Origin: Parabacteroides faecis
GTDB taxonomy: Bacteria; Bacteroidota; Bacteroidia; Bacteroidales; Tannerellaceae
NCBI RefSeq assembly: GCF_014647375.1
Contig: NZ_BMPB01000010.1
Location: forward strand, 124,001-188,000
Direction of reading: 5' to 3'
DNA: 64,000 nt
Within the stretch, counting starts at the first letter, position 1; the number at the start of each line of letters is the position of its first letter. Below the pieces are notes generated by a model. The model worked only from the letters and a program-made list of their open reading frames with translations. It was not told the DNA's origin and did no database searches. Shown here piece by piece: positions 40,361 through 54,318 of the stretch. The position numbers were made by a program, and so were the translations under genes.

Positions 40361-43300
40361 ATGAAATTATCATTAGCAATCCTTTCGCTCGCAATCCTTT
40401 CGAGCGGGAATGCCTCGTTTGCCCAAACCGACAAACAAGACAAAAAGGCGAAGGCTTATATGGTTGCCGACGCCCACCTGGACACCCAATGGAACTGGGA
40501 CATCCAGACAACGATCAAAGAGTATGTTTGGAATACGCTCAGTCAGAATCTATTCCTGTTGAAACGCTATCCCGACTATGTGTTCAACTTCGAAGGCGGT
40601 GTAAAATATGCCTGGATGAAGGAATATTATCCGGTGCAGTATGAAGAGATGAAAGAGTATATCAAGAACGGCCGTTGGCATATCTCCGGCAGTAGTTGGG
40701 ATGCGACGGATGTGCTGGTGCCTTCTACCGAGTCGTTTATCCGCAACATCATGCTCGGTCAGGAGTACTACCGGAAAGAGTTCGGTGTGGAAAGCACGGA
40801 TATCTTCCTGCCCGACTGCTTTGGCTTCGGCTGGACGTTGCCGACGATCGCTTCCCATTGCGGACTGATCGGTTTCTCATCCCAGAAGCTCGACTGGCGT
40901 AACAATCCGTTTTACGGAAAAAGCAAACATCCTTTCATGATCGGTATGTGGAAGGGAGTGGACGGCGCCTCCATCATGCTGGCTCACGGATATGACTACG
41001 GCAGAAGATGGAAAGACGAAGATCTGTCTGAAAGCAAGTATCTGCTGGACCTTAGCAAACGTAATCCGTTCAATATCGTTTATCGTTATTACGGAACAGG
41101 CGATACGGGCGGTTCACCTAATCTTGCCTCTGTCCGCTCCGTTGAAAAAGGTATTAAGGGCGATGGTCCGGTAGAAGTGATCAGTGCCACCAGCGACCAG
41201 ATGTTCAAAGACTTCATGCCTTATGGCAAACATCCTGAACTGCCAGTCTTTGACGGCGAACTGTTGATGGATGTGCACGGAACCGGTTGTTACACCTCCC
41301 AAGCCGCTATGAAACTATATAACCGCCAGAACGAAGTCCTGGCAAATGCCGCCGAGAATGCTGCTGTTGCAGCGGACTGGTTGGGAACGGCTACTTATCC
41401 GTTGAATACATTGACTGATGCCTGGAAGCGGTTTATCGTTCACCAGTTCCATGACGACCTGACGGGAACGAGTATTCCCCGGGCCTATGAATTCTCATGG
41501 AATGATGAATTGATCTCCCTCAAACAGTTTGCCGGTGTATTGACATCCTCCGTGAGTGGCGTAGCCAGTCAGTTGGATACCCGTGTAAAAGGTACTCCGG
41601 TTATCCTGCATAATGCGCATTCTTTTCCGGTAACCGATCTGGTAGAAGTTGTACTGGATATGCCGAAATCACCGAAAGGGGTGACCGCTTATGATGAAAA
41701 AGGAAAGAAAGTAGCCACCCAGATGCTTTCTTATGAAAACGGAAAAGCCCGTGTGTTGATTGCTGCTTCCGTTCCGGCAAGCGGCTATGCCGTTTATGAT
41801 GTGCGTGAAGGAGGTTCGGCAACCCGTACGGTTTCTTCTGAAGCGAACACATTGGAAAACTCTCTGTATAAGATACAGCTGGATGGAAAAGGAGATATCA
41901 TCTCTCTTTTCGATAAGAAGAACAATAAAGAACTGGTGAAGGAAGGCAAAGCAATCCGTTTGGCTCTCTTTACGGAGAACAAATCGTATAACTGGCCTGC
42001 CTGGGAGATTATCAAAGAAACGACTGATAAAGAACCGATCTCTATCACCGGAGATGTGAAGATCTCTCAGATCGAGAACGGGGAGTTGAGAAAGTCTCTC
42101 TGCATAGAAAAGCGCCACGGAGAGTCCGTATTCAAACAATATATCCGTTTGTACGAAGGAAGCCGTGCCGACCGTATCGACTTTTACAATGAAATAGACT
42201 GGCAATCGACCAATGCGCTGCTGAAAGCCGAGTTCCCGTTGAGTATCGCAAACCCGGAAGCAACCTATGATCTGGGTATCGGAAGCGTTAAGAGAGGAAA
42301 TAATACGCTGACAGCCTATGAAGTGTATGCACAGTATTGGGCAGACCTGACGGATGCAAACGGTTCGTATGGCGTATCTGTCCTGAATGACAGCAAGTAC
42401 GGTTGGGACAAACCGAACGATTATACGCTCCGGTTGACTTTGCTTCATACACCGGAAACAAAGGGCGGTTATGCTTATCAGGATCGTCAGGACTTTGGTT
42501 ACCATACATTTACTTATAGTTTGCTGCCTCATGCCGGAGCGTTCGAGAAAGCACAGACAGGTGTTTCTGCCGATAAGTTAAACCAACCGATCATGGCTTT
42601 TGCAGCTAATAAACATACCGGCCGTCTGGGTAAATCTTTCTCTTTTGTCAATTCGGATAACACAAGTGTCGTTATCAAGACGCTAAAGAAAGCCCAGGCA
42701 TCCGACGAACTGGTAGTTCGTGTATATGAAACCGGTGGAGTGAAGGAACAGACTGCCGAAATTTCTTTTGCAGATGCGATTGTCAGTGCAAGCGAAGCCG
42801 ACGGAACAGAGAAGACAATAGGCAAAGCAGCCTTCAATGGTAATAAGTTGCAGGTATCTATCAAGCCTAATTCGGTGAAAACCTTCAAGGTTAAACTCAA
42901 ATCGTCAGATGCTCCGGTTGATAAACCCCTATATGCAAGCCTGGCTCTGGATTATGATAAAAAATGCGTCAGCTGGAATGAATTCCGTCGTGAAGCAGAT
43001 TTCTCTTCCGGTTATTCTTATGCCGCAGAATTATTGCCCGATTCGATCGTAATCAATTCCATTCCGTTCATTCTGGGTGAAAAAGAAGCAGCCAACGGTC
43101 TGACTTGTAAAGGGGATACGATAGAGTTGCCGGCTGGAAACAATTATAACCGCGTTTACTTCCTGGCCGCATCGAGAGAAGGTGACAACGAAGGTATCTT
43201 CAGACTGGGTAAAACGGAACAGACGATAACAGTTCCCGAATATACAGGCTTTATCGGCCAATGGGGTCATACGGGCCATACGGAAGGTTTCCTGAAAGAG

Positions 43301-43966
43301 GCGGAGATCGCTTATGTAGGAACTCACCGGCATGCTCCGGGTGGAGACGAAGCGTATGAATATACTTATATGTTTAAATTCGGTATGGATATTCCCAAAG
43401 GGGCAACCCAATTGATTCTGCCGGATAATAAAGATATTGTATTGTTTGCTGCAACAGCAGTGAAAGAAGAAAATCCGCAGGTTTCTCCGGCTTCTGCACT
43501 ATTCCGTACGGCCTTGAAATCTCAGAACGGTAATAAGGCAAATGCTCCGAAAGTAAATCTGATGAAAGGGGCAAAGGTGATTGCTTGTTCAGGATTCGTC
43601 AATGATGAAGAGTCTCCCGAACGTATGATCGACGGAGATACGCAGACGAAATGGTGTGATATTACCGGTATGCCTAATTATGCAGACTTCGATTTGGGAG
43701 AAAGCAGGAAGGTCAGCGGTTGGAAACTGGTGAATGCCGGGCAGGAAAGTCATTCTTATGTAACCCGTACTTGCTTCCTTCAGGGAAAGAATAGCTTGTC
43801 GGAAGAGTGGAAAACGTTAGGACGTCTGGATGACAACCGTAAAAATGAAGTGACCGGTTTGTTGACGAAACCCGAATCGGTTCGTTACATCCGTTTACTG
43901 ATTGCTCAACCGGCGCAGGAAACCGGTAGCCGCGATGCTCGTATTTATGAGCTGGAGGTTTATTGA
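40361..43966 (+). CDS. Secreted GH38 alpha-mannosidase with C-terminal F5/8-type (discoidin-like) domain
   Basis: 1201 residues with signal peptide (to SFAQ, about 22). GH38 catalytic domain first: MVADAHLDTQWNWD (zinc-binding His and Asp), then IFLPDCFGFGWTLPTI with the nucleophile Asp, and VHQFHDDLTGTSIPRAY. Middle and beta-sandwich domains follow to about 1050. The end (VIACSGFVNDEESPERMIDGD, TKWCDITG, DFDLGESRKVSGWKLVNAG) is an F5/8C-like sugar-binding module, not part of minimal GH38. It trims alpha-linked mannose from N-glycans or mannan. It shows more G+C at third positions than the susC/D genes upstream (by eye), which may mark a different origin. Confidence 0.95.
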   Translation: MKLSLAILSLAILSSGNASFAQTDKQDKKAKAYMVADAHLDTQWNWDIQTTIKEYVWNTLSQNLFLLKRYPDYVFNFEGGVKYAWMKEYYPVQYEEMKEYIKNGRWHISGSSWDATDVLVPSTESFIRNIMLGQEYYRKEFGVESTDIFLPDCFGFGWTLPTIASHCGLIGFSSQKLDWRNNPFYGKSKHPFMIGMWKGVDGASIMLAHGYDYGRRWKDEDLSESKYLLDLSKRNPFNIVYRYYGTGDTGGSPNLASVRSVEKGIKGDGPVEVISATSDQMFKDFMPYGKHPELPVFDGELLMDVHGTGCYTSQAAMKLYNRQNEVLANAAENAAVAADWLGTATYPLNTLTDAWKRFIVHQFHDDLTGTSIPRAYEFSWNDELISLKQFAGVLTSSVSGVASQLDTRVKGTPVILHNAHSFPVTDLVEVVLDMPKSPKGVTAYDEKGKKVATQMLSYENGKARVLIAASVPASGYAVYDVREGGSATRTVSSEANTLENSLYKIQLDGKGDIISLFDKKNNKELVKEGKAIRLALFTENKSYNWPAWEIIKETTDKEPISITGDVKISQIENGELRKSLCIEKRHGESVFKQYIRLYEGSRADRIDFYNEIDWQSTNALLKAEFPLSIANPEATYDLGIGSVKRGNNTLTAYEVYAQYWADLTDANGSYGVSVLNDSKYGWDKPNDYTLRLTLLHTPETKGGYAYQDRQDFGYHTFTYSLLPHAGAFEKAQTGVSADKLNQPIMAFAANKHTGRLGKSFSFVNSDNTSVVIKTLKKAQASDELVVRVYETGGVKEQTAEISFADAIVSASEADGTEKTIGKAAFNGNKLQVSIKPNSVKTFKVKLKSSDAPVDKPLYASLALDYDKKCVSWNEFRREADFSSGYSYAAELLPDSIVINSIPFILGEKEAANGLTCKGDTIELPAGNNYNRVYFLAASREGDNEGIFRLGKTEQTITVPEYTGFIGQWGHTGHTEGFLKEAEIAYVGTHRHAPGGDEAYEYTYMFKFGMDIPKGATQLILPDNKDIVLFAATAVKEENPQVSPASALFRTALKSQNGNKANAPKVNLMKGAKVIACSGFVNDEESPERMIDGDTQTKWCDITGMPNYADFDLGESRKVSGWKLVNAGQESHSYVTRTCFLQGKNSLSEEWKTLGRLDDNRKNEVTGLLTKPESVRYIRLLIAQPAQETGSRDARIYELEVY

Positions 43967-44060
43967 TGGATTGAGGAACCTTCTTGTTTGTGTTGTCAAT
44001 ATAGTAGTTTTGTAATACAAATACAATTTCTTTCTAATCCAAATACCCTTATCTTTTATA

Positions 44061-44148
44061 TTTTTGACCTGGGTGCTAAACGTTTTTGACCTGGGTGGTA
44101 AACGTTTTCGACCTAGGTGCTAAACGTTTTTGACCTTGGTCAAAAATA
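44061..44148 (+). repeat. Tandem 22-bp repeat, about four units
   Basis: Units at 44061, 44083, 44105 and 44127. Each starts TTTTTGACCTGGG and ends TGCTAAACG, with single-base changes. The last unit breaks off as a palindrome, TTTTTGACC-TT-GGTCAAAAA. It lies between the convergent GH38 and DUF302 genes. The repeat has no spacers, so it is not CRISPR; it resembles iterons or an operator array. Confidence 0.9.
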
Positions 44149-44209
44149 TGGAAGATAGTATGCTTTATATTAGAACACTATTGTTTTTGAACCAGAAAGT
44201 AATAGTCTT

Positions 44210-44677
44210 TTACTTATCCTCCTTTATTCCGGCTGCCTGGTAGACTATATTTTCCAACAATTCCTGCATCTTTCCGATAACCGGCTCTTTCTCCAATCCG
44301 TACTCCGAAGCTAATCGTTCCATTTGAGGGAAAGAAGTCCATACTTTCCCATCCTTATCTTCCCATACCGATATCTTTAGTGGCAATTCGATGGAAATAG
44401 CCGGATTTTCCTGCATCAGCTTAGTGCCGACTTTAGGCGAACCGAATACGATCACCTGGTTCGGGCGTAGTTTCAGACCTGCTTCTTCCGCATTTTTCCC
44501 ATGATCGAACTTAGCGAATACCGGAATATCCTTTTTATGCAGTATCAGTTCGATACGCTTCATTGTTTCGTCTACACTGAATTTGCTTTCCTGATTATTC
44601 ATATTACTTCCTCCTTTTTGTGCCAGTGCTGCCCCTGCAATCAGAAGCCCTGCCAGAATTGATATATACTTTTTCAT
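44210..44677 (-). CDS. Secreted DUF302 protein
   Basis: 155 residues. Signal peptide MKKYISILAGLLIAGAALAQ. The DUF302 core reads FSVDETMKRIELILHKKDIPVFAKFDHGKNAEEAGLKLRPNQVIVFGSPKVGTKLMQ and ISIELPLKISVWEDKDGKVW. The family forms small dimers and its role is unclear; envelope stress or metal links have been suggested. It is divergent from the cassette and, in the arrangement without the cassette, would be divergent from the isochorismatase-family gene. It has its own promoter. Confidence 0.9.
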   Translation of the reverse strand: MKKYISILAGLLIAGAALAQKGGSNMNNQESKFSVDETMKRIELILHKKDIPVFAKFDHGKNAEEAGLKLRPNQVIVFGSPKVGTKLMQENPAISIELPLKISVWEDKDGKVWTSFPQMERLASEYGLEKEPVIGKMQELLENIVYQAAGIKEDK

Positions 44678-44707
44678 ATTATACTTCTATTATCTGTCAT
44701 TTCCCTG

Positions 44708-44715
44708 CAAAAATA
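44708..44715 (-). promoter_or_regulatory. Bacteroidetes -7 element for the DUF302 gene
   Basis: TATTTTTG on the minus strand fits TAnnTTTG, 31 bp before the ATG. The 47-bp repeat begins 21 bp farther upstream, so an insertion there left this promoter core intact. Confidence 0.5.
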
Positions 44716-44736
44716 AAAGAATAACGTATTTCTTTA

Positions 44737-44783
44737 GATAACAGTTTTACCTGTTGATTTGTCAATTTTACCTGGGGATAATT
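44737..44783. repeat. 47-bp direct repeat, left copy
   Basis: Identical base for base to 49226-49272. It contains TTTTACCTG twice, 21 bp apart, around the small inverted repeat TTGA-TTTG-TCAA. The sequences outside the two copies differ immediately. Confidence 0.95.
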
Positions 44784-44842
44784 TTATCCTGTATCGAACA
44801 GGATTATTTATCCATGTAATACCTATTTTTTTGTTTTTCTTG

Positions 44843-44872
44843 TTAGGGTAAATTGAAAAAAAGTTGTTCTTC
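44843..44872 (+). promoter_or_regulatory. TAGGG-N14-GTTGTTC motif, site 2 (before the cassette)
   Basis: TTAGGGTAAATTG, a run of A, then GTTGTTCTTC, with the same 19-nt spacing as the other four sites. It is 30-59 bp before the first cassette gene. No sigma gene or remnant precedes it here, so control would be from a sigma factor elsewhere. Confidence 0.55.
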
Positions 44873-44901
44873 TTTAGAATCTTATAAATTAAAATTCTAT
44901 T

Positions 44902-46173
44902 ATGAAAGAAAGAATTGCCTATTGTCTTTTACTGATAGTTTGTGTACTTGCCTATTTTAAAGTTCTTCAAGCTGATTTTCTTTATTACTGGGATGATCAG
45001 GTTATCGTAATGAATCAATATACTGTTGGAGGTTGGAATTGGAATAACTTGTGGCATATTTGTACTGATTTTCATGCGGGACAGTATGCGTCTGTCATGG
45101 AGATGAATTTCTTGATATTATATACCTTCTTTGGTTATGATCCTTTCTGGTTTCATCTGGCGAATCTGTGTTGGCATCTGGGGTGTGTTTGTCTGGTTGG
45201 CTTATTTGTTGTTCGGTTATTAAAAATACATGGTTGTTTTTCAAATAGAGATATTCATCTGATTGCATTTTTGACAGCCTTGATTTTTTCTATTCATCCA
45301 TTTAATGTCGAAGCAGTAGCCTGGGTTAGTGCCGTGAAGATTTTAATATATAGTTTCTTTTATTTATTGGCTGCCATTTGTTACCTCCGGTATATCAGGA
45401 CAATGGCGAAGAAGGATTATTTGTTGACCCTGTTTTTATTTATTGTTTCCTTTCTGGCAAAAGAGCAGGCTGTTACACTCCCATTCCTGTTGATACTCAT
45501 TGATTGGTTTGGTCATCGAAATTTGAGAGAAGAGAATTTGTGGGTTGAAAAACTCCCATTTTTCGTGTTGTCTTTATTCTTTGGGATAATTACAATTCTC
45601 TCTCAGCAAGGAGGAGGGGATGCTCCTGTTTATCCATTTGTACAACGTATGATTTTGGCCTGCTATACACTTTTTGAATATTTGACAAAGTCTTTATTCC
45701 CTATTGGATTGAATTATTTATATCCGTTTCCCATCCTTCCCGGGGAGAGTTTACCTATAAGGTTTTGGATTTATCCTTTCTTGGTGATATGTCTGGTTTC
45801 TTGGTTATGGGTCAACAGGAAAAATAGGTTGTTATTGTTTGGTGCATGTTTCTTTTTTATTCATCTATTGGTGGCATTGAATATTATCTCCACATCCAGG
45901 CAAGCAATCGTTGCAGACCGATATTCGTATATAAGTAATATCGGAATTGTCTTTTTAATGGCTGTAATACTCGTATGGTTAAAAAGTAAATGGGAAAATA
46001 CATATAAATGGAAAGGAATACTTGCTGCTTTCCTGATATATAGTTTTTATTTGGGGGGATACACACATATTTATTCTACACGCTGGGAAAATACTGAAAA
46101 AGTGAAACTTCATATCAATGAATTATTGAAAGAAAGAGAAATGACAGATAAAAAACAGGCTCAGTCAGAATAG
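44902..46173 (+). CDS. TMTC/PMT-like GT-C membrane glycosyltransferase without TPR repeats
   Basis: 423 residues, about ten membrane spans. The first loop holds the acidic pair in FLYYWDDQVIVMNQ, as in GT-C enzymes that use polyprenyl-phosphate sugars. DPFWFHLANLCWHLGCVCLV, HPFNVEAVAWVSAVK, FLAKEQAVTLPFLL and LFPIGLNYLYPFP match the TMTC/DUF1736 pattern. TMTC relatives add O-mannose to secreted proteins in animals; bacterial roles are mostly unknown. The usual C-terminal TPR part is absent: the protein stops in a charged tail (NELLKEREMTDKKQAQ). The next gene encodes a Thr-rich secreted protein, the obvious candidate acceptor (inference). Confidence 0.75.
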   Translation: MKERIAYCLLLIVCVLAYFKVLQADFLYYWDDQVIVMNQYTVGGWNWNNLWHICTDFHAGQYASVMEMNFLILYTFFGYDPFWFHLANLCWHLGCVCLVGLFVVRLLKIHGCFSNRDIHLIAFLTALIFSIHPFNVEAVAWVSAVKILIYSFFYLLAAICYLRYIRTMAKKDYLLTLFLFIVSFLAKEQAVTLPFLLILIDWFGHRNLREENLWVEKLPFFVLSLFFGIITILSQQGGGDAPVYPFVQRMILACYTLFEYLTKSLFPIGLNYLYPFPILPGESLPIRFWIYPFLVICLVSWLWVNRKNRLLLFGACFFFIHLLVALNIISTSRQAIVADRYSYISNIGIVFLMAVILVWLKSKWENTYKWKGILAAFLIYSFYLGGYTHIYSTRWENTEKVKLHINELLKEREMTDKKQAQSE

Positions 46174-46208
46174 TCTGAGTCAAATTATTAATATAAATAT
46201 TTTACATT

Positions 46209-46640
46209 ATGAAAGTGAAAAACATTATTTCGTTAGGTGGTGTGTTTGCTCTGTTAATGGGGCTGGGATTGAATCTGGAATACGCACTGGATGATTATGG
46301 TTTAAAGAGTAACTCATTGGATTTATTCGTATTGGCGCAAGCGAGTAATTCGGGTGGGGATCAAACTCATGGGCATCAAGCATCAACGACTGCTCACTGT
46401 GTGAAAACAACAACAACGGTTACAACAACTACTTCCGGAAATTCTTCTTCTGTAGGTGGAGGTGTCTCTGCTGGATGGGGAGGTGTTTCTGGCGAGGCGT
46501 CTGGAACTACAGGTAGTTCTACTGGAAATACGACGACGACAACTGTAACTACAACTGAAGAGTATAATGCAAGTAAGCTATATTGTGAAGATGTTGCTAA
46601 TATGGTAGAAGTCTGTGTAAATTTTGATCCTTGTAAGTGA
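46209..46640 (+). CDS. Small secreted Thr/Ser/Gly-rich protein, NVEALA-like leader
   Basis: 143 residues. N-terminal signal (MKVKNIISLGGVFALLMGLG) then LEYALDDYGLKSNSLDLFVLAQ, which resembles the leader of NVEALA-type small proteins of Bacteroidales (recalled, not searched). The centre is low complexity: TTTTVTTTT, a Gly/Ser stretch with GGGVSAGWGGVSGEASG, then TTTTTVTTT. The end has three cysteines (LYCEDVANMVEVCVNFDPC), a fourth lies at AHC before the first Thr run. The Thr runs suit O-glycosylation, yet the general Bacteroides motif D-S/T-hydrophobic is not visible. A strong hairpin follows the gene and may boost its mRNA. Confidence 0.7.
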   Translation: MKVKNIISLGGVFALLMGLGLNLEYALDDYGLKSNSLDLFVLAQASNSGGDQTHGHQASTTAHCVKTTTTVTTTTSGNSSSVGGGVSAGWGGVSGEASGTTGSSTGNTTTTTVTTTEEYNASKLYCEDVANMVEVCVNFDPCK

Positions 46641-46657
46641 CAGATATTCTATAAAAT

Positions 46658-46694
46658 AAGTGTTTTGTGATTGATATCAGTCTACAAAACACTT
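46658..46694 (+). terminator. Hairpin after the small secreted protein gene
   Basis: A perfect 11-bp stem AAGTGTTTTGT / ACAAAACACTT with a 15-nt loop lies 18 bp after the stop. There is no clean T run after it. It may give partial termination or mRNA protection, so that the small protein is made in excess. Confidence 0.6.
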
Positions 46695-46743
46695 GTTCTA
46701 TATATTTCTAAAGATACATTTTTATATATAATATAAATTAGAC

Positions 46744-47925
46744 ATGAAAAGATATACATTATTATTTATTTTAGTCGTATTTTTTTTATCCTGCAAGAAA
46801 AATTCTCAGAATTATCCCAAGGAAATATCCCTTTTGAGAAATATGGAAGAAACAGTTGAAGTGCATATTGATTTAAATAAAGACTGTTTGCCTTTTGATA
46901 GCTTAATGAATAAAGTCAACTATGTAAAGTTGGAAACTACCGGTGATAATCTTATAGGAGAGATTTCTCAACTTTTGTTTGTGGATGATAAAATTATTGT
47001 GGTGGATGCCAGACAATCTAAAACAATAACAGTCTATGATGAAAAAGGTCATTATTTATATAAAATAGGAGTGTTAGGACAAGGACCGATGGAGTATGGA
47101 GCATTGAATCATGTAGCTTTTACTCCGGAGAAAGAAATGCTTGTCATAACAGATTTGAAGGGTGGACGACTAAAATATTATAGTATAGATGGACGTTATG
47201 TGAAATCGGTGAAACTACCTTATTGGTTTAGTCGTTGTGAGTTTATAACTGATAATTTGATTGCTGGTTTTTGGTCAGGAGGGACTGTTATACCTGGAGA
47301 AAATAAAAATTATAAACCTCTTTTGGTAGTTACAGACTTATTAGGTAATGTTTCTTCTTCGGCTTTTCAGAGTTATTATAGCAAGGAATATACAACTACA
47401 GTTTTCGATCCGATTCGAAAATTCGCAGATCGGGTGTTATACAATAACCCAAATACAGATTCGATTTTCCTGTTGACCCCAAATGGCATTGAGTTAGCTT
47501 ATCATTTGAATATAGAAGGAGCTAAACCCATGATACTGAATGAGGATGTTACTGATGAGTTATTGAAAGAACAACGCAGGAATAACCCATTTTTCAATGG
47601 AGATTTTATAGAGTTGAAGGATGGTGCTATATTTCATATTTTTGAGTCAGGATTTCCTGCTTATCGTTTTGGTATTTATTCAAAAGCGAAACAACGCACT
47701 TTTTGTTGTACTGGTATTCGTTATAGTCCTTTTTTCTGCTTTTTTGGTGCCCCTAAAGCTCGCTATGGTGATAATACGGTAGTTGTGGATGCTCGTTCGG
47801 ACATTGCTCTTGCTTATAAAAATGAACTATACAAACTAGGGAAGAGGGAGGAAATCGACGAGTTTTATAAAGATTTGACTGAAGATAGTAATCCTGTCTT
47901 GTTCTTCTACGAATTAAAATTTTAG
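46744..47925 (+). CDS. 6-bladed beta-propeller lipoprotein of the cassette
   Basis: 393 residues. Lipoprotein signal MKRYTLLFILVVFFLSC. Blade motifs: FVDDKIIVVDARQSKTITVYDEKGHYLYKIG, then GQGPMEYGALNHVAFTPEKEMLVITD, where G-x-GP-x-E-Y is the family mark. The end, DSNPVLFFYELKF, matches the two other propeller proteins in this window. Function of the family is unknown; it may bind peptides or glycans at the surface. It is 104 bp after the small protein gene. Confidence 0.85.
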   Translation: MKRYTLLFILVVFFLSCKKNSQNYPKEISLLRNMEETVEVHIDLNKDCLPFDSLMNKVNYVKLETTGDNLIGEISQLLFVDDKIIVVDARQSKTITVYDEKGHYLYKIGVLGQGPMEYGALNHVAFTPEKEMLVITDLKGGRLKYYSIDGRYVKSVKLPYWFSRCEFITDNLIAGFWSGGTVIPGENKNYKPLLVVTDLLGNVSSSAFQSYYSKEYTTTVFDPIRKFADRVLYNNPNTDSIFLLTPNGIELAYHLNIEGAKPMILNEDVTDELLKEQRRNNPFFNGDFIELKDGAIFHIFESGFPAYRFGIYSKAKQRTFCCTGIRYSPFFCFFGAPKARYGDNTVVVDARSDIALAYKNELYKLGKREEIDEFYKDLTEDSNPVLFFYELKF

Positions 47926-47929
47926 TTCT

Positions 47930-48553
47930 ATGTATAAGATAGTAATTGGTATTTTACTTTTTGTCAACATATTATTAAGTGTAATATGTTTGAATCTGTT
48001 CAAAGATAAAACGTTGTTGGTATCCGGAAAACAATCTGTAGAAGATGATAGGCAGCTAGAAGTTTTGGAGAATAATTTCAAATTAGGTATCCGTAATGAT
48101 AACTCTATATTGGATACATCTGCTGTAATTCATGATTTGAATAAAAATAAAATTAGTTTGTCAGAAATTCCAACAGATGCGCCTTGCTTGGTTATTAGAT
48201 TTTCAGAAACCAATTGCGATGAATGTGTTCGCTTTCTGTTGATAAAAGTGATGAGATTATATAATAGTGATCTTTTCAACAAAAGAATTCTCTTATTCGC
48301 TTCTTATCAAAATCGGAAAGCACTTAGAATATTGATAGATCGTTTGAATATTAAATATCCTGTTTATTTGATCGATAAATTACCCATTCCTTGTGAACAG
48401 ATAAATTATCCTTATTGCTTTATATTGGATAGTACAAAGCGAACGAGTCATGTTTTTGTCCCTGATAAATATGAACCTCAGGTTGCAAATACTTATTTTG
48501 AACTAATAGAAAATCGGTATTTTAAAAATGGCTTTTCAGAAACGAATAGATGA
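47930..48553 (+). CDS. Membrane-anchored thioredoxin-like protein
   Basis: 207 residues. One N-terminal span (about 3-22, VIGILLFVNILLSVICLNLF), then a periplasmic domain with LVIRFSETNCDECVRFLLIKVM. The C-x-x-C in a beta-strand/helix context, the following ILLFASYQNRKALRILIDRL, and the cis-Pro-like LPIPCEQINYPYCFILD fit a thioredoxin fold. Sequence match is weak, so redox activity is inferred. It could act on the cysteine-rich end of the small secreted protein. Its stop overlaps the next start as ATGA; it begins 4 bp after the propeller gene. Confidence 0.6.
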   Translation: MYKIVIGILLFVNILLSVICLNLFKDKTLLVSGKQSVEDDRQLEVLENNFKLGIRNDNSILDTSAVIHDLNKNKISLSEIPTDAPCLVIRFSETNCDECVRFLLIKVMRLYNSDLFNKRILLFASYQNRKALRILIDRLNIKYPVYLIDKLPIPCEQINYPYCFILDSTKRTSHVFVPDKYEPQVANTYFELIENRYFKNGFSETNR

Positions 48554-49227
48554 GGAGATTTTTTATAATATGGTTTATAATCACTTTTTTATGTGTGATT
48601 GTAAGGATTTTTGGAGGAGAGATATGTGTTGTTCCGTCATCCAGTATGGAACCTACAATTCTTGTCGGCGATTGGTTGTGGATAGATAAGTTGACCTATG
48701 GTGCTCGTTTACCAGCTCGTTGGAGTGATATTCCATTAATAAATGTGTTTACATGGAATACGACTTTACGACAAAAGGATGGAAGAATAACCTGGGGCTA
48801 TCATAGAGTTGGAGGTGCTAGAAATCCTAGAGTCTCTGATATCATTGTTTTTAATAGTCCTGAGAGGCCGGATATTTTATTGGTAAAGAGAGTCGCAGGG
48901 ATTATTTCTGCCGGGGATACTGTTACATTTAATGAAAAGACCTATTTGAGTCTAAAGAAGATACTTGATAATGAGTATGCTTCTTCCTTTGTAAGAAAGA
49001 AAAAGATATATATAAATGGTAGAGCCGATTCGTCTTACCGGGTAAAACAGAATTATTATTTTGTGTTAGGAGATAATGCATCTGAATCTTACGACAGCAG
49101 GTCATTCGGCTATCTTCCGGAGAGTTCTGTTGTAGGAAAGGTTGATCGTGTGTTATTTTCGATTGATCCTGACTGTTCGAAATTTTGTAGATTTCGTTTC
49201 CTTAGATTGTTTCATCATTTGCTTTGA
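48550..49227 (+). CDS. Cassette-specific type I signal peptidase (S26)
   Basis: 225 residues. N-terminal span (FFIIWFIITFLCVIVRIFG), then the catalytic serine in VPSSSMEPTILVGDWLWIDK and the lysine in DILLVKRVAGIISAGD. Box E is GDNASESYDSRSFGYLP. Both catalytic residues and all boxes are present, so it should be active. A second signal peptidase beside one small secreted protein suggests dedicated leader cleavage. The stop codon runs into the right 47-bp repeat. Confidence 0.9.
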   Translation: MRRFFIIWFIITFLCVIVRIFGGEICVVPSSSMEPTILVGDWLWIDKLTYGARLPARWSDIPLINVFTWNTTLRQKDGRITWGYHRVGGARNPRVSDIIVFNSPERPDILLVKRVAGIISAGDTVTFNEKTYLSLKKILDNEYASSFVRKKKIYINGRADSSYRVKQNYYFVLGDNASESYDSRSFGYLPESSVVGKVDRVLFSIDPDCSKFCRFRFLRLFHHLL

Positions 49228-49272
49228 TAACAGTTTTACCTGTTGATTTGTCAATTTTACCTGGGGATAATT
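49226..49272. repeat. 47-bp direct repeat, right copy
   Basis: Identical to 44737-44783. It starts within the signal peptidase stop codon and is followed 49 bp later by the promoter of the isochorismatase gene. Confidence 0.95.
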
Positions 49273-49320
49273 GCTAAATGTAATGGCGATATTGTTATTC
49301 CCGGACGATATGCCGCATTG

Positions 49321-49328
49321 TAACTTTG
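49321..49328 (+). promoter_or_regulatory. Bacteroidetes -7 element for the isochorismatase-family gene
   Basis: TAACTTTG fits TAnnTTTG, 84 bp before the ATG. Confidence 0.5.
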
Positions 49329-49412
49329 CAATCAGAAAAATGAGTGGTATGAAACGCTATAGCAAAAAGACAATCACTTATTAGGTATAATCACTTAGAA
49401 AGAAGTACGACA

Positions 49413-50189
49413 ATGAAAATGAAAAGATTTTTAGTCGCCTGTTTGGTTTTGGTTGCAGGAACAGGTATGGTGTTTGCCGGAGTTAGTAATGAAAACAAAA
49501 AAGAAAACGAAATGAAAGAGAAGAAAGCGAAAGACGAATTTATTATTGATGAGCATACTGCTATTGTAATGACTGACCCTCAAAATGATTTCCTTAGTGA
49601 AGAGGGTAAAGGTTGGGGATTGTTTGGGGAGAATATAACCAAGAACGGTACGGTAGAACATTTGCGGCAGATATTTGATGTGGCAGCTCAAAAAGATATG
49701 CTGGTTTTCATCTCTCCGCATTACTATTACAAACATGACCATGAATGGACGTTCGAAGGTCCTGTAGAGAAAATGATGCATGAGAACGGCATGTTTGAGC
49801 GAAAGGGACAGTTGACAGATGAAGGTTTTGAAGGTTCCGGAGCGGACTGGCTGGATATCTATAAGCCTTACATTAATAATACAAACAAAGTTATTGTTAC
49901 AGCTCCTCACAAACTGTTCGGTCCTGAAAACAACGACCTGATCCTTCAGTTGAGGAAACGGGGGATCAATAAAGTCGTGATTTGCGGTATGTCAGGTAAT
50001 TTATGTGCAGAATCCCATTTACGTGAATTGCAGGAGCGGGGGTTCGAAGCCGCTGTCGTTTTCGACGCTACTGCTTCGGCACGCATACAGGGAATGGATG
50101 CGGATACTGCTGCTTTTATAAATTTCTCATTGTTGGCTGAAAAAGTATATACAACCGATGAGTTTGTAAAAGAGATGCAGACAAGATAA
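49413..50189 (+). CDS. Exported isochorismatase-family cysteine hydrolase
   Basis: 258 residues (a second ATG two codons in is equally possible). It has a signal peptide (FLVACLVLVAGTGMVFAG) and a Lys/Glu-rich spacer before the catalytic domain. The triad is complete: Asp in AIVMTDPQNDFL, Lys in VTAPHKLFG, Cys in CGMSGNLCAESHLREL. The family cleaves amides such as nicotinamide or ureido acids, or acts on isochorismate. A periplasmic member is less usual and the substrate is unknown. It was probably once divergent from the DUF302 gene, before the cassette came between them. Confidence 0.9.
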   Translation: MKMKRFLVACLVLVAGTGMVFAGVSNENKKENEMKEKKAKDEFIIDEHTAIVMTDPQNDFLSEEGKGWGLFGENITKNGTVEHLRQIFDVAAQKDMLVFISPHYYYKHDHEWTFEGPVEKMMHENGMFERKGQLTDEGFEGSGADWLDIYKPYINNTNKVIVTAPHKLFGPENNDLILQLRKRGINKVVICGMSGNLCAESHLRELQERGFEAAVVFDATASARIQGMDADTAAFINFSLLAEKVYTTDEFVKEMQTR

Positions 50190-52398: not shown

Positions 52399-53568
52399 TT
52401 AAAAGTCTTTTAATGTGAATTCTATTAGAATAGGGTTGCTCTCAGGTGTGATTTTTTTTAGTTCCGACAATTTTTCCTGGGAAATGAAAGAAGAAAGTTT
52501 ATCACTTAATTGTATATCTATAGCAGGTATACATCCAATAATTGTATTTCCTCTCTTTCCTAATATTTTGATATATCCTCCGAGTAAATCATTTATTGGT
52601 TTACCTTCCAATATATGACCATTACTTTTGTTATAATATACATCTGCATAAGATTCAAATCCAAAATTGTATGAGAATCTTACTATATTTGAAGTTTCAA
52701 GAACTTCTCGAGCATACCATACTGTTTTGGGATGAGCATGAATGTACTCGTCGACATCAGATCCAGGTATTTGATCCAAATCTATTTTTGATTTATTTTC
52801 GCCAAAATCAATGACATATGAAGGAGTTATACAATCCTTATGTATAGAATAGATGGTGTCACAAAATGCATAATGGCATGTTATTTTACCATCTTCCTGT
52901 TCTGAAAAAGGAATTCTAGTGAAAAAACTCATATATGATTTATTGGGCTCATGTTGTAAGGCTGCTTTTGATTTAAACCATGTCTTCTTTTCTCCTTGAG
53001 GACTTAGCATTGTAATGTTTCCAGTTAAGAAGCCATCTCCGATATGAGAATTATTAGTTTTATTGGTATAAAAATAAATATTACCATTTTTTTCTATACA
53101 AAAATCGCTGAATGCAAGGCTGTATGGCTTATTCCCTAGATATTTACCCGCATAATTATATTTATAAAATGAGTTATTATTTGTCAACCAGATTTCTTTA
53201 TCTATTTTATTCAAGGCGAAATTTTGTGGAAAACGAATTTCTCCTGGTCCCTGTCCTTTCTTAGCTGGTTTACAGTTAAATTTTCCATTTCTATTGAAAA
53301 TGTATATAAGCATATCCTGGTCATTTTGAATAAAATATAACCCTTCGTCATATTCGAGTTCCCTTATATCACTTAGAAGTGCTTGTTCTGTTGTTTCTAA
53401 TGGTAGAATATGTAGAGAGTCAATAATACTTGATAAAAGTAAATGGCTCTCCTTATTAGGGGTTAATTTGATAGTGGTGATTTCACTTTCAGATATATTA
53501 TCTGTACATGAAAAAATGCTCGAAAGTGATAATATACATAATGTATAAAGCCTAACTGTTTTAATCAT
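52399..53568 (-). CDS. 6-bladed beta-propeller lipoprotein (module A)
   Basis: 389 residues. Signal MIKTVRLYTLCILSLSSIFSC with lipobox cysteine. Propeller marks: LSDIRELEYDEGLYFIQND, MLIYIFNRNGKFNCKPAKKGQGPGEIRFPQNFAL (the GQGPGE family mark), and GNIYFYTNKT. It ends SNPILIEFTLKDF, like its paralogs. It is 147 bp after the sigma gene, with the TAGGG/GTTGTTC motif between, here 100-128 bp before the start. Likely an outer-surface or periplasmic ligand-binding protein; the ligand is unknown. Confidence 0.85.
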   Translation of the reverse strand: MIKTVRLYTLCILSLSSIFSCTDNISESEITTIKLTPNKESHLLLSSIIDSLHILPLETTEQALLSDIRELEYDEGLYFIQNDQDMLIYIFNRNGKFNCKPAKKGQGPGEIRFPQNFALNKIDKEIWLTNNNSFYKYNYAGKYLGNKPYSLAFSDFCIEKNGNIYFYTNKTNNSHIGDGFLTGNITMLSPQGEKKTWFKSKAALQHEPNKSYMSFFTRIPFSEQEDGKITCHYAFCDTIYSIHKDCITPSYVIDFGENKSKIDLDQIPGSDVDEYIHAHPKTVWYAREVLETSNIVRFSYNFGFESYADVYYNKSNGHILEGKPINDLLGGYIKILGKRGNTIIGCIPAIDIQLSDKLSSFISQEKLSELKKITPESNPILIEFTLKDF

Positions 53569-53715: not shown

Positions 53716-54318
53716 TTACTTTTTCATCAAAATAAATTGAAGGATGCAAATGGCAATAGTAAAATAGTCTTTTATAAGATCGCTTTTTAGTTGCTTTAAG
53801 GCGTTTTTAATATGATATTCAACGCTTTTTGTTGAAATGCCTAGCTGGTCTGCAATTTCTTTATTCTTGAGTCCGTTATATCGGCTTAGCATAAAAATCT
53901 CTTTGGTCTGCGCTGGTAATTTTTCTAAAGAGGTTGCTATTGCCTGAGCCAATTCCTTTGTGATAAGTATTTCAAGTGAATCATCTTCAAGAACATATAC
54001 ATTGCTTCTTTGATAAACGGTACATTCATTCAGATCATCTATCGGTATTGTATGCAGTTGCAGGCTCTTTAAATAGTTTAGACATTTATTACGACCGACA
54101 ACCATCAGATAAGTGATCAGGCAGGTATTATCTTCCAGATACTTCCTTTGACTCCAAAGAACCAGAAATGTATCCTGCACAATCTCTTTTGCAGCCTCTT
54201 TGTTTATCACATAAATATTGGCAAATGCATATAAACGAGGCCAGTAGGATTTAACTATCTGTTCAAAGACTTTTTCATTACCATCCTTTAGTTGCTGTAT
54301 TAGAAGTGATCGGCCCAT
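53716..54318 (-). CDS. ECF sigma factor (module A), paralog of the mannosidase-locus sigma
   Basis: 200 residues. Region 2: IVKSYWPRLYAFANIYVINKEAAKEIVQDTFLVLWSQRKYL. Region 4: LPAQTKEIFMLSRYNGLKNKEIADQLGISTKSVEYHIKNALKQL. Much of the text, such as DNTCLITYLMVVGRNKCLNYL and LEDDSLEILITKEL, is near-identical to the sigma at 32846-33442. The tail YFTIAICILQFILMKK is hydrophobic. No FecR gene is present; a propeller lipoprotein stands in its place. A possible -7 element is 330 bp upstream. Confidence 0.93.
   Translation of the reverse strand: MGRSLLIQQLKDGNEKVFEQIVKSYWPRLYAFANIYVINKEAAKEIVQDTFLVLWSQRKYLEDNTCLITYLMVVGRNKCLNYLKSLQLHTIPIDDLNECTVYQRSNVYVLEDDSLEILITKELAQAIATSLEKLPAQTKEIFMLSRYNGLKNKEIADQLGISTKSVEYHIKNALKQLKSDLIKDYFTIAICILQFILMKK

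What the first reader, a model, noticed from the sequence alone, without database searches (positions are those of the whole stretch)
44902..49227. Candidate new system: small Thr-rich secreted protein with its own glycosyltransferase, thioredoxin-like protein and signal peptidase
Five genes in one direction: TMTC-like GT-C glycosyltransferase, 143-aa Thr/Ser/Gly-rich secreted protein with terminal cysteines, propeller lipoprotein, C-x-x-C membrane protein, active-looking signal peptidase I. Each has a plausible job on the small protein: glycosylation, binding, cysteine handling, leader cleavage. I know no named system with this set. It could make a glycosylated surface peptide, a toxin or a signal.
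Basis: partly seen in the sequence, partly recalled or inferred. Interest (0 to 1): 0.88.

Follow-up and report, generated by a model that had tools for sequence, protein, structure and literature searches.

The report
Gene cassette glycosylating a small secreted protein
A gut bacterium carries a compact set of neighbouring genes, found with variations in related bacteria, that appears dedicated to exporting, sugar-coating, folding and trimming one small, fast-changing secreted protein of unknown purpose.

Summary
The five genes are real, at the stated places, in a Parabacteroides genome. They form one 4,489-bp unit bounded by a 47-bp perfect direct repeat; a relative has the same site with one repeat copy and no unit. 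In a glycosyltransferase (GT) tree, a 36-row clade of short TMTC/PMT-like GT-C enzymes (KEQ motif) has the small-protein leader within 4 kb in 28 of 35 loci, against 0 of 43 for the sister group. Propeller lipoproteins, thioredoxin-like proteins, signal peptidases and GT2-like genes (GtrB in the one tested) are linked to the same clade only. The small proteins share an exported leader, mostly ending xxA|Q, then a usually Ser/Thr-rich, cysteine-bearing, variable part. They resemble Pfam NVEALA proteins in layout but do not match that model. Best reading: a dedicated O-glycosylation and maturation locus for a small secreted protein. Sugar transfer, cleavage and the product's role are inferred, not shown. 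Nine literature searches found no description.

The parts
44737..44783 (+). left copy of the 47-bp perfect direct repeat bounding the cassette
   Evidence: corresponds to the single copy in the cassette-free site of G004 (L193)
44902..46173 (+). GT-C glycosyltransferase of the TMTC/PMT type, short KEQ clade without TPR (423 aa)
   Evidence: motifs DD (31-32), KEQ (187-189), DRYxY (339-343) compared with TMTC motifs M1, M4, M7 in PMC7801869 (passages)
46209..46640 (+). small secreted protein (143 aa): exported leader to about residue 43 (VLA|Q), then Thr/Ser/Gly-rich part with 4 Cys
46744..47925 (+). 6-bladed beta-propeller lipoprotein (DUF5128; lipobox-like FFLSC, my reading)
47930..48553 (+). 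membrane-anchored C-x-x-C thioredoxin-fold protein (ResA/TlpA-like)
48550..49227 (+). signal peptidase I with Ser32/Lys113 dyad
49226..49272 (+). right copy of the 47-bp direct repeat; overlaps the last 2 bases of the signal peptidase stop codon

Best explanation
The cassette is a dedicated export-and-maturation locus for one small, fast-evolving secreted protein. The protein is exported by Sec and held by its N-terminal hydrophobic leader. On the periplasmic face the GT-C enzyme transfers a sugar from undecaprenyl-phosphate-sugar (made by a GtrB-type enzyme, encoded near the GT in many relatives and elsewhere in this genome) to Ser/Thr residues of the linker that follows the leader. The ResA-like C-x-x-C protein handles the cysteines, the dedicated signal peptidase cuts after xxA so that the mature protein starts with Gln, and the propeller lipoprotein binds or passes on the product at the outer membrane. 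Shown here by computation: gene set, folds, motifs, conserved association, presence or absence of the unit as a block. Inferred: sugar transfer to this protein, cleavage site and its enzyme, disulfide handling, the propeller's role. The product's purpose is unknown; its variability, tandem copies, decayed copies and insertion history fit a surface antigen, signal or competition factor.
For: Leader HMM match within 4 kb of the GT in 28 of 35 loci of the clade against 0 of 43 in the sister group (22 of the 28 loci helped to build that HMM, 6 did not: L071, L076, L078, L086, L100, L105). An HMM-free rule gives 25 of 35 (in L074 and L077 it hit other ORFs) against 2 of 43. Within 6 kb: propeller 25 of 35, C-x-x-C 13, signal peptidase 13, each 0 of 43; GT2-like (by a motif rule) within 3 kb 23 of 35 against 0 of 43. 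Four of four GT2 scanned pass PF00535; the Rhodonellum one matches GtrB, PDB 5ekp, E 1.2e-74. Residues: DD 34 of 34 letters, Lys187 36 of 36, Glu188 35 of 36 (1 of 43 in the sister group). Signal peptidase Ser32 17 of 17, Lys113 15 of 15 letters. Ser/Thr in the 20 residues after the cut: median 0.32 in 28 loci against 0.15 in NVEALA proteins of 8 genomes, p 0.0015. xxA|Q in 28 of 39 small proteins, shuffled mean 0.96, fits the Bacteroidetes Q-rule (PMC5837995, passages). In G106, a genome not used for the models, GT, signal peptidase and a GtrA-like frame (my reading) lie on one contig, small protein, propeller and C-x-x-C protein on another.
Against: No direct evidence of glycosylation or cleavage. 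The signal peptidase, and likewise the C-x-x-C protein, was not detected within 6 kb in 22 of 35 clade loci, some of them on short contigs. In G106 the small protein is not beside the GT. The small protein exists without a GT in G060, and signal peptidase + C-x-x-C + propeller exist without GT or small protein in G013's second locus. The window cassette has no GtrB. GT-C enzymes with GtrB also decorate O-antigen, so the acceptor could be a glycan (PMC11127046, passages). Several small proteins have few Ser/Thr after the cut (L083 0.05, L087 0.10, L091 0.15, most of P. massiliensis 0.15). Foldseek E-values for the GT are weak and it matches no Pfam PMT model.
Confidence: 0.6

Rival explanations
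1. The GT-C enzyme with GtrB modifies a surface polysaccharide, as in three-component Gtr systems, and the small protein, propeller, thioredoxin and signal peptidase are an independent NVEALA-like module that travels with it.
For: GtrB/GtrA/GT-C sets are known for O-antigen (PMC11127046, passages); one relative has GtrA by Pfam (L077); NVEALA clusters with a signal peptidase but no homologue of this GT occur in the same genus.
Against: This GT clade is strongly tied to the small protein (28 of 35 against 0 of 43); its motifs are shared with TMTC protein O-mannosyltransferases; the linkers are richer in Ser/Thr than those of NVEALA proteins.
Confidence: 0.2
2. A competition locus: the small protein is a bacteriocin-like or contact toxin, the propeller lipoprotein its immunity or receptor partner, the other genes its maturation.
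For: Conserved leader with a variable Cys-bearing part and tandem copies with different cores; patchy distribution, decayed copies, presence or absence as a unit.
Against: No similarity to a toxin family found: no Pfam or NCBIfam match over cut-off for the small protein, no PADLOC match for the five proteins at E 0.01; DUF5128 propellers also occur elsewhere. Not exclusive of the best explanation.
Confidence: 0.12
3. Loosely co-inherited envelope genes with no shared substrate.
For: Signal peptidase and C-x-x-C protein are optional; partial loci exist.
Against: Similar gene sets in distant lineages and 0 of 43 in the control clade; co-occurrence at two loci in G106.
Confidence: 0.08

Closest known systems
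TMTC1-4 / PMT protein O-mannosyltransferases (GT-C)
   Same: GT-C fold, DD after TM1, KE(T/Q) and (E/D)RxxY motifs
   Different: No TPR domain, bacterial, donor presumably undecaprenyl- not dolichyl-phosphate; linked to one small-protein gene; acceptor and sugar untested
Three-component Gtr systems (GtrA/GtrB/GT-C) for O-antigen side chains
   Same: GT2-like gene near the GT-C gene in 23 of 35 relatives, GtrB in the one compared with PDB, GtrA in one by Pfam
   Different: Gene company is secreted-protein maturation, not O-antigen; the window cassette has no GtrA or GtrB
NVEALA small proteins (PF14055) and their clusters
   Same: Leader of the same layout, short Cys-bearing mature part, propellers, DUF1573, a signal peptidase nearby in many
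   Different: 0 of 30 members of the small-protein set match PF14055; no homologue of this GT in the 13 regions read; mature part less Ser/Thr-rich; xxA|Q in 12 of 45 against 28 of 39
General Bacteroidota O-glycosylation (D(S/T)X motif)
   Same: O-glycosylation of exported proteins in the same phylum (PMC10897501, passages)
   Different: Motif D[ST][AILVMT] after residue 38 in 7 of 39 small proteins and not in the window's
Actinobacterial PMT protein mannosylation
   Same: PMT-class enzyme acting on secreted proteins (recalled; only the listing of PMC12757957 was seen)
   Different: A general system, not a single substrate gene beside the enzyme (recalled)

Membership tests
GT-C superfamily, PMT/TMTC type | GT-C membrane fold | tested here: met
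   Top 9 PDB matches are GT-C enzymes, but E 0.01-0.27 and pLDDT 73.6
GT-C superfamily, PMT/TMTC type | Catalytic acidic pair after TM1 (TMTC M1) | tested here: met
   D31 D32; 34 of 34 letters in the clade (motif from PMC7801869)
GT-C superfamily, PMT/TMTC type | KE(T/Q)xxT (M4) and ERxxY (M7) motifs | tested here: met
   Window KEQAVT 187-192 and DRYSY 339-343, D in place of E. In the clade KEQ and RxxY are kept but the M4 Thr is Thr in only 6 of 36
GT-C superfamily, PMT/TMTC type | TMTC M5 DW motif in EL4 | tested here: inconclusive
   A DW at 201-202 lies 14 residues after KEQ, whereas in TMTC it lies over 100 residues after
GT-C superfamily, PMT/TMTC type | Match to Pfam PMT models | tested here: not met
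   Window GT no family at E 1; L097 PF13231 below cut-off; sister-group L147 above it
TMTC (strict) | C-terminal TPR region | tested here: not met
   423 aa, no TPR match; the 6 sister-group GTs scanned all have TPR, the 3 clade GTs scanned have none
Signal peptidase I (S26) | S26 model and Ser/Lys dyad | tested here: met
   PF10502, TIGR02227 over cut-off; Ser32, Lys113
ResA/TlpA thiol-disulfide oxidoreductases | Membrane-anchored thioredoxin fold with C-x-x-C | tested here: met
   Foldseek E 3e-6 to ResA; C96 and C99; no sequence match over cut-off
NVEALA (PF14055) | Match to the Pfam model | tested here: not met
   0 of 30 members; the window's small protein is not among the 8 matches in its genome
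Three-component Gtr system | GtrA and GtrB encoded with the GT-C gene | tested here: not met
   No such ORF in the window cassette; GT2-like gene near in 23 of 35 relatives; best GtrB-like hit in the own genome on another contig
Bacteroidota general O-glycosylation substrate | D(S/T)X motif in the mature part | tested here: not met
   Absent in the window protein; 7 of 39 in the family
Protein O-glycosylation | Sugar on the small protein | not testable with these tools
   needs mass spectrometry

The most novel reading that the evidence does not exclude
A so far undescribed class of one-substrate glycoprotein systems in Bacteroidota: a KEQ-type GT-C O-glycosyltransferase with its GtrB donor enzyme, co-evolved with a variable small secreted protein, dedicated signal peptidase, thioredoxin and propeller, moving between strains as a cassette and diversifying by duplication of small-protein genes. 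With the NVEALA clusters, some of which carry a Wzy_C ligase-like gene, it would form one superfamily of small-protein export and glycosylation systems.
Probability: 0.4. Interest if true: 0.85.

Novelty: new variant of a known kind. Interest (0 to 1): 0.66.

Why it matters
If true, bacteria have TMTC/PMT-type enzymes committed to a single small secreted protein. That would give a simple gene-paired model for how this enzyme family chooses substrates, and a lead on the function of a class of unexplained small proteins (this family and NVEALA) in gut and environmental Bacteroidota. It also names a candidate protein O-glycosylation route separate from the phylum's general D(S/T)X system.

Tried and rejected
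NVEALA membership: rejected by HMM, kept as likeness in layout only. Anti-phage defence: no PADLOC match at E 0.01. RNA element in 44000-49600: no Rfam match at gathering. PHROGs: one solid match, the signal peptidase to a family of unknown function. Plasmid carriage: GT protein not in the plasmid collection at E 1e-5. Repeat: a 32-base core had no exact match in viral contigs; the 43-base core with up to 3 mismatches was found in 0 of the other 38 genus genomes, G004's copy being more diverged; its origin stays unknown. G159's GT looked short but reads SKVMA where the clade has KEQ, and its contig ends there. Adjacency in G106 failed: no small protein near its GT; one was found on another contig. 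DW as TMTC M5: rejected by position.

Dropped rows and weak points: L073 dropped (same contig as L078). The tree labels (29 rows with a small protein, 8 changes against a shuffled mean of 23.8) were set by eye; the counts used here are those. In one search, 2 of 39 small proteins had no cut called and some cuts were mis-set; redid all 39, P. massiliensis merged into one value (L072 and L074 come from one MAG and were not merged). In one search, 46 small ORFs were listed and 45 with the motif were used; its 13 regions were chosen because searches had shown matches there. The compared sequences are related, so p-values are indicative. L088 (Clostridium MAG) and L091 (Phycisphaerales MAG) are probably mis-binned (inference).

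Literature: NVEALA, 0 papers; DUF5128/DUF4934/BF3164, one paper, on a Brachyspira adhesin; the other searches listed no paper on this gene set by title or start of abstract. Nine searches in all. I saw passages of PMC7801869, PMC11127046, PMC5837995, PMC10897501 and PMC12645811, and the listing only of PMC12757957.
Full report
WHAT IS THERE. The window lies in a 6.66-Mb genome of the genus that holds Parabacteroides massiliensis: contig length 469,959 ties G021 to NZ_LT700192.1. The five ORFs are as described. Short gaps and one overlap make an operon likely (inference). GC of the unit is 0.340 against 0.408 for the rest of the window.

A DISCRETE UNIT. A 47-bp perfect direct repeat flanks the five genes 4,489 bp apart. 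In G004 the flanking genes (DUF302 protein and isochorismatase-like hydrolase) stand side by side with one diverged copy of the repeat and no cassette. The unit was therefore gained here, or lost in G004, as a block. That the two copies are identical while G004's differs argues for a recent gain in the window's lineage (inference). None of the five genes matches a recombinase; how the unit moved is unknown.

CONSERVED NEIGHBOURHOOD. In 39 genus genomes, full-length GT homologues occur in 5 (window genome, G006, G013, G021, G034). All 5 have the small protein within about 1.1 kb; in G006 a GT2-like gene lies between. One of the 34 others (G060) has the small protein without a GT. Fisher p is 1e-5, ignoring relatedness. 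A scan of genome contigs with the GT alignment kept the best 80 of 532 relatives, 79 distinct loci. A tree of 79 rows (78 loci after dropping L073, plus the window) splits into 36 mostly short GTs including the window's, and 43 others (SH-aLRT 99; quick tree). The 6 of those 43 scanned with Pfam all carry TPR repeats.

Beside the clade's GTs the small-protein leader is found in 28 of 35 loci, beside the others in 0 of 43. The seven misses: L070 and L102 end at or near the contig end; L096 lies on a 3.7-kb contig; L083 and L088 have a small-protein match more than 4 kb away; in L082 and L146 none was found. The leader HMM was built from 22 of those 28 loci, so the fair part of this test is the 0 of 43, the 6 loci not used, and the HMM-free rule (25 of 35, two of them other ORFs, against 2 of 43). 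Propellers (25 of 35), C-x-x-C proteins (13), signal peptidases (13) and GT2-like genes (23) are each 0 of 43 beside the other GTs.

In Algoriphagus and Rhodonellum the usual order is GT-C, GT2 (overlapping), small protein, TolB-like propeller; the Rhodonellum GT2 is GtrB-like. Single loci examined add DUF1573, MauE or GtrA. In 247 genomes of the order drawn evenly, 91 have some GT relative at E 1e-40. Of the matches looked at further, only G106's, besides the window's own, is of the short KEQ type; most of the 91 were not classed. G106 was not used to build any model. It has GT, a second large membrane protein, signal peptidase and a GtrA-like frame (my reading, not scanned) on one contig, and small protein, propeller and C-x-x-C protein on another. 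This is a failed adjacency test but a met co-occurrence test.

THE ENZYMES. The GT keeps the acidic pair (D31, D32), KEQ (187-189) and DRYxY (339-343). These correspond to the TMTC motifs M1, M4 and M7; PMC7801869 aligns M1 with known active sites and models M4 and M7 at the phosphate of the lipid donor, M4 also at the metal (passages). The Glu of KEQ is in 35 of 36 clade members and 1 of 43 others; the Thr of M4 is not kept (6 of 36). So the clade is a distinct subfamily with what looks like an intact donor site. Signal peptidase residues Ser32 and Lys113 are kept. The C-x-x-C protein folds like ResA.

THE SMALL PROTEIN. Leader: hydrophobic helix, usually Asn, a spacer of about 20 residues, then xxA. 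28 of 39 have xxA followed by Gln, against a shuffled mean of 0.96 and 12 of 45 in the NVEALA set. Bacteroidetes signal peptidase I substrates usually expose Gln there, average 71% across species (PMC5837995, passages). The spacing from the hydrophobic core to the cut (median 20 residues, some cuts mis-set) is longer than in ordinary signal peptides (recalled), a possible reason for a dedicated peptidase. After the cut comes a stretch usually rich in Ser, Thr and Gly, then cysteines; the mature part varies strongly. Ser/Thr in the first 20 mature residues: median 0.32 (28 loci) against 0.15 in NVEALA proteins of 8 genomes; L083 (0.05) and L087 (0.10) are exceptions.

RELATION TO NVEALA. No member of A5 matches PF14055 (0 of 30), but the layout is the same. 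Of 24 genus genomes with NVEALA matches, 17 have a signal peptidase match within roughly 15 kb of one, read by eye (one search's list was cut; the 7 without, G002, G005, G007, G023, G027, G030 and G061, are in many contigs). No chance level was computed for this. Six of 13 NVEALA regions fetched also hold a 600-aa protein; one was scanned and has Wzy_C, the others match it. I take both as branches of one kind of small-protein export locus with different sugar-transfer genes; that is inference.

HOW IT LIKELY WORKS. See best explanation. Shown by computation: gene content, folds, catalytic residues, association, presence or absence as a block. Inferred: donor, acceptor, order of events, the propeller's role, purpose.

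NOVELTY. The parts are known; no paper listed by my nine searches describes the set. I rate it a new variant of a known kind (GT-C protein O-glycosylation) because the substrate pairing is untested biochemically.

Noticed in passing
G000 C11:206000-222000 (L066 6551-9554): Second, decayed copy of the locus in the same genome: 50-aa GT fragment, propeller, C-x-x-C protein, 150-aa protein, N-terminally short signal peptidase (126 aa).
   Followed up: partly
L063 6188-17844 and L064 5944-10837 (P. massiliensis): Three full GT genes and five small-protein genes in tandem, one pair preceded by a GT 3'-end fragment, as if [GT end + small protein] were duplicated as a unit.
   Followed up: partly
L068 5476-6797: Orphan small-protein gene with a GT 3'-end fragment, next to a gene that reads like a serine recombinase (my reading, not scanned).
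   Followed up: no
L180, L182, L183, L185, L188, L189: NVEALA clusters with a signal peptidase and a Wzy_C-like protein nearby (L185's scanned, the others by similarity), a candidate O-ligase for the NVEALA proteins.
   Followed up: partly
window 44061-44140: Direct repeats of 22-bp period (TTTTTGACCTGGGTGnTAAACG-like) between the ORF at 40361-43966 and the DUF302 gene.
   Followed up: no
window 52399-53568 (-): Another DUF5128 propeller protein outside the cassette, downstream on the same strand of an ORF that reads like an ECF sigma factor (53716-54318, not scanned).
   Followed up: no
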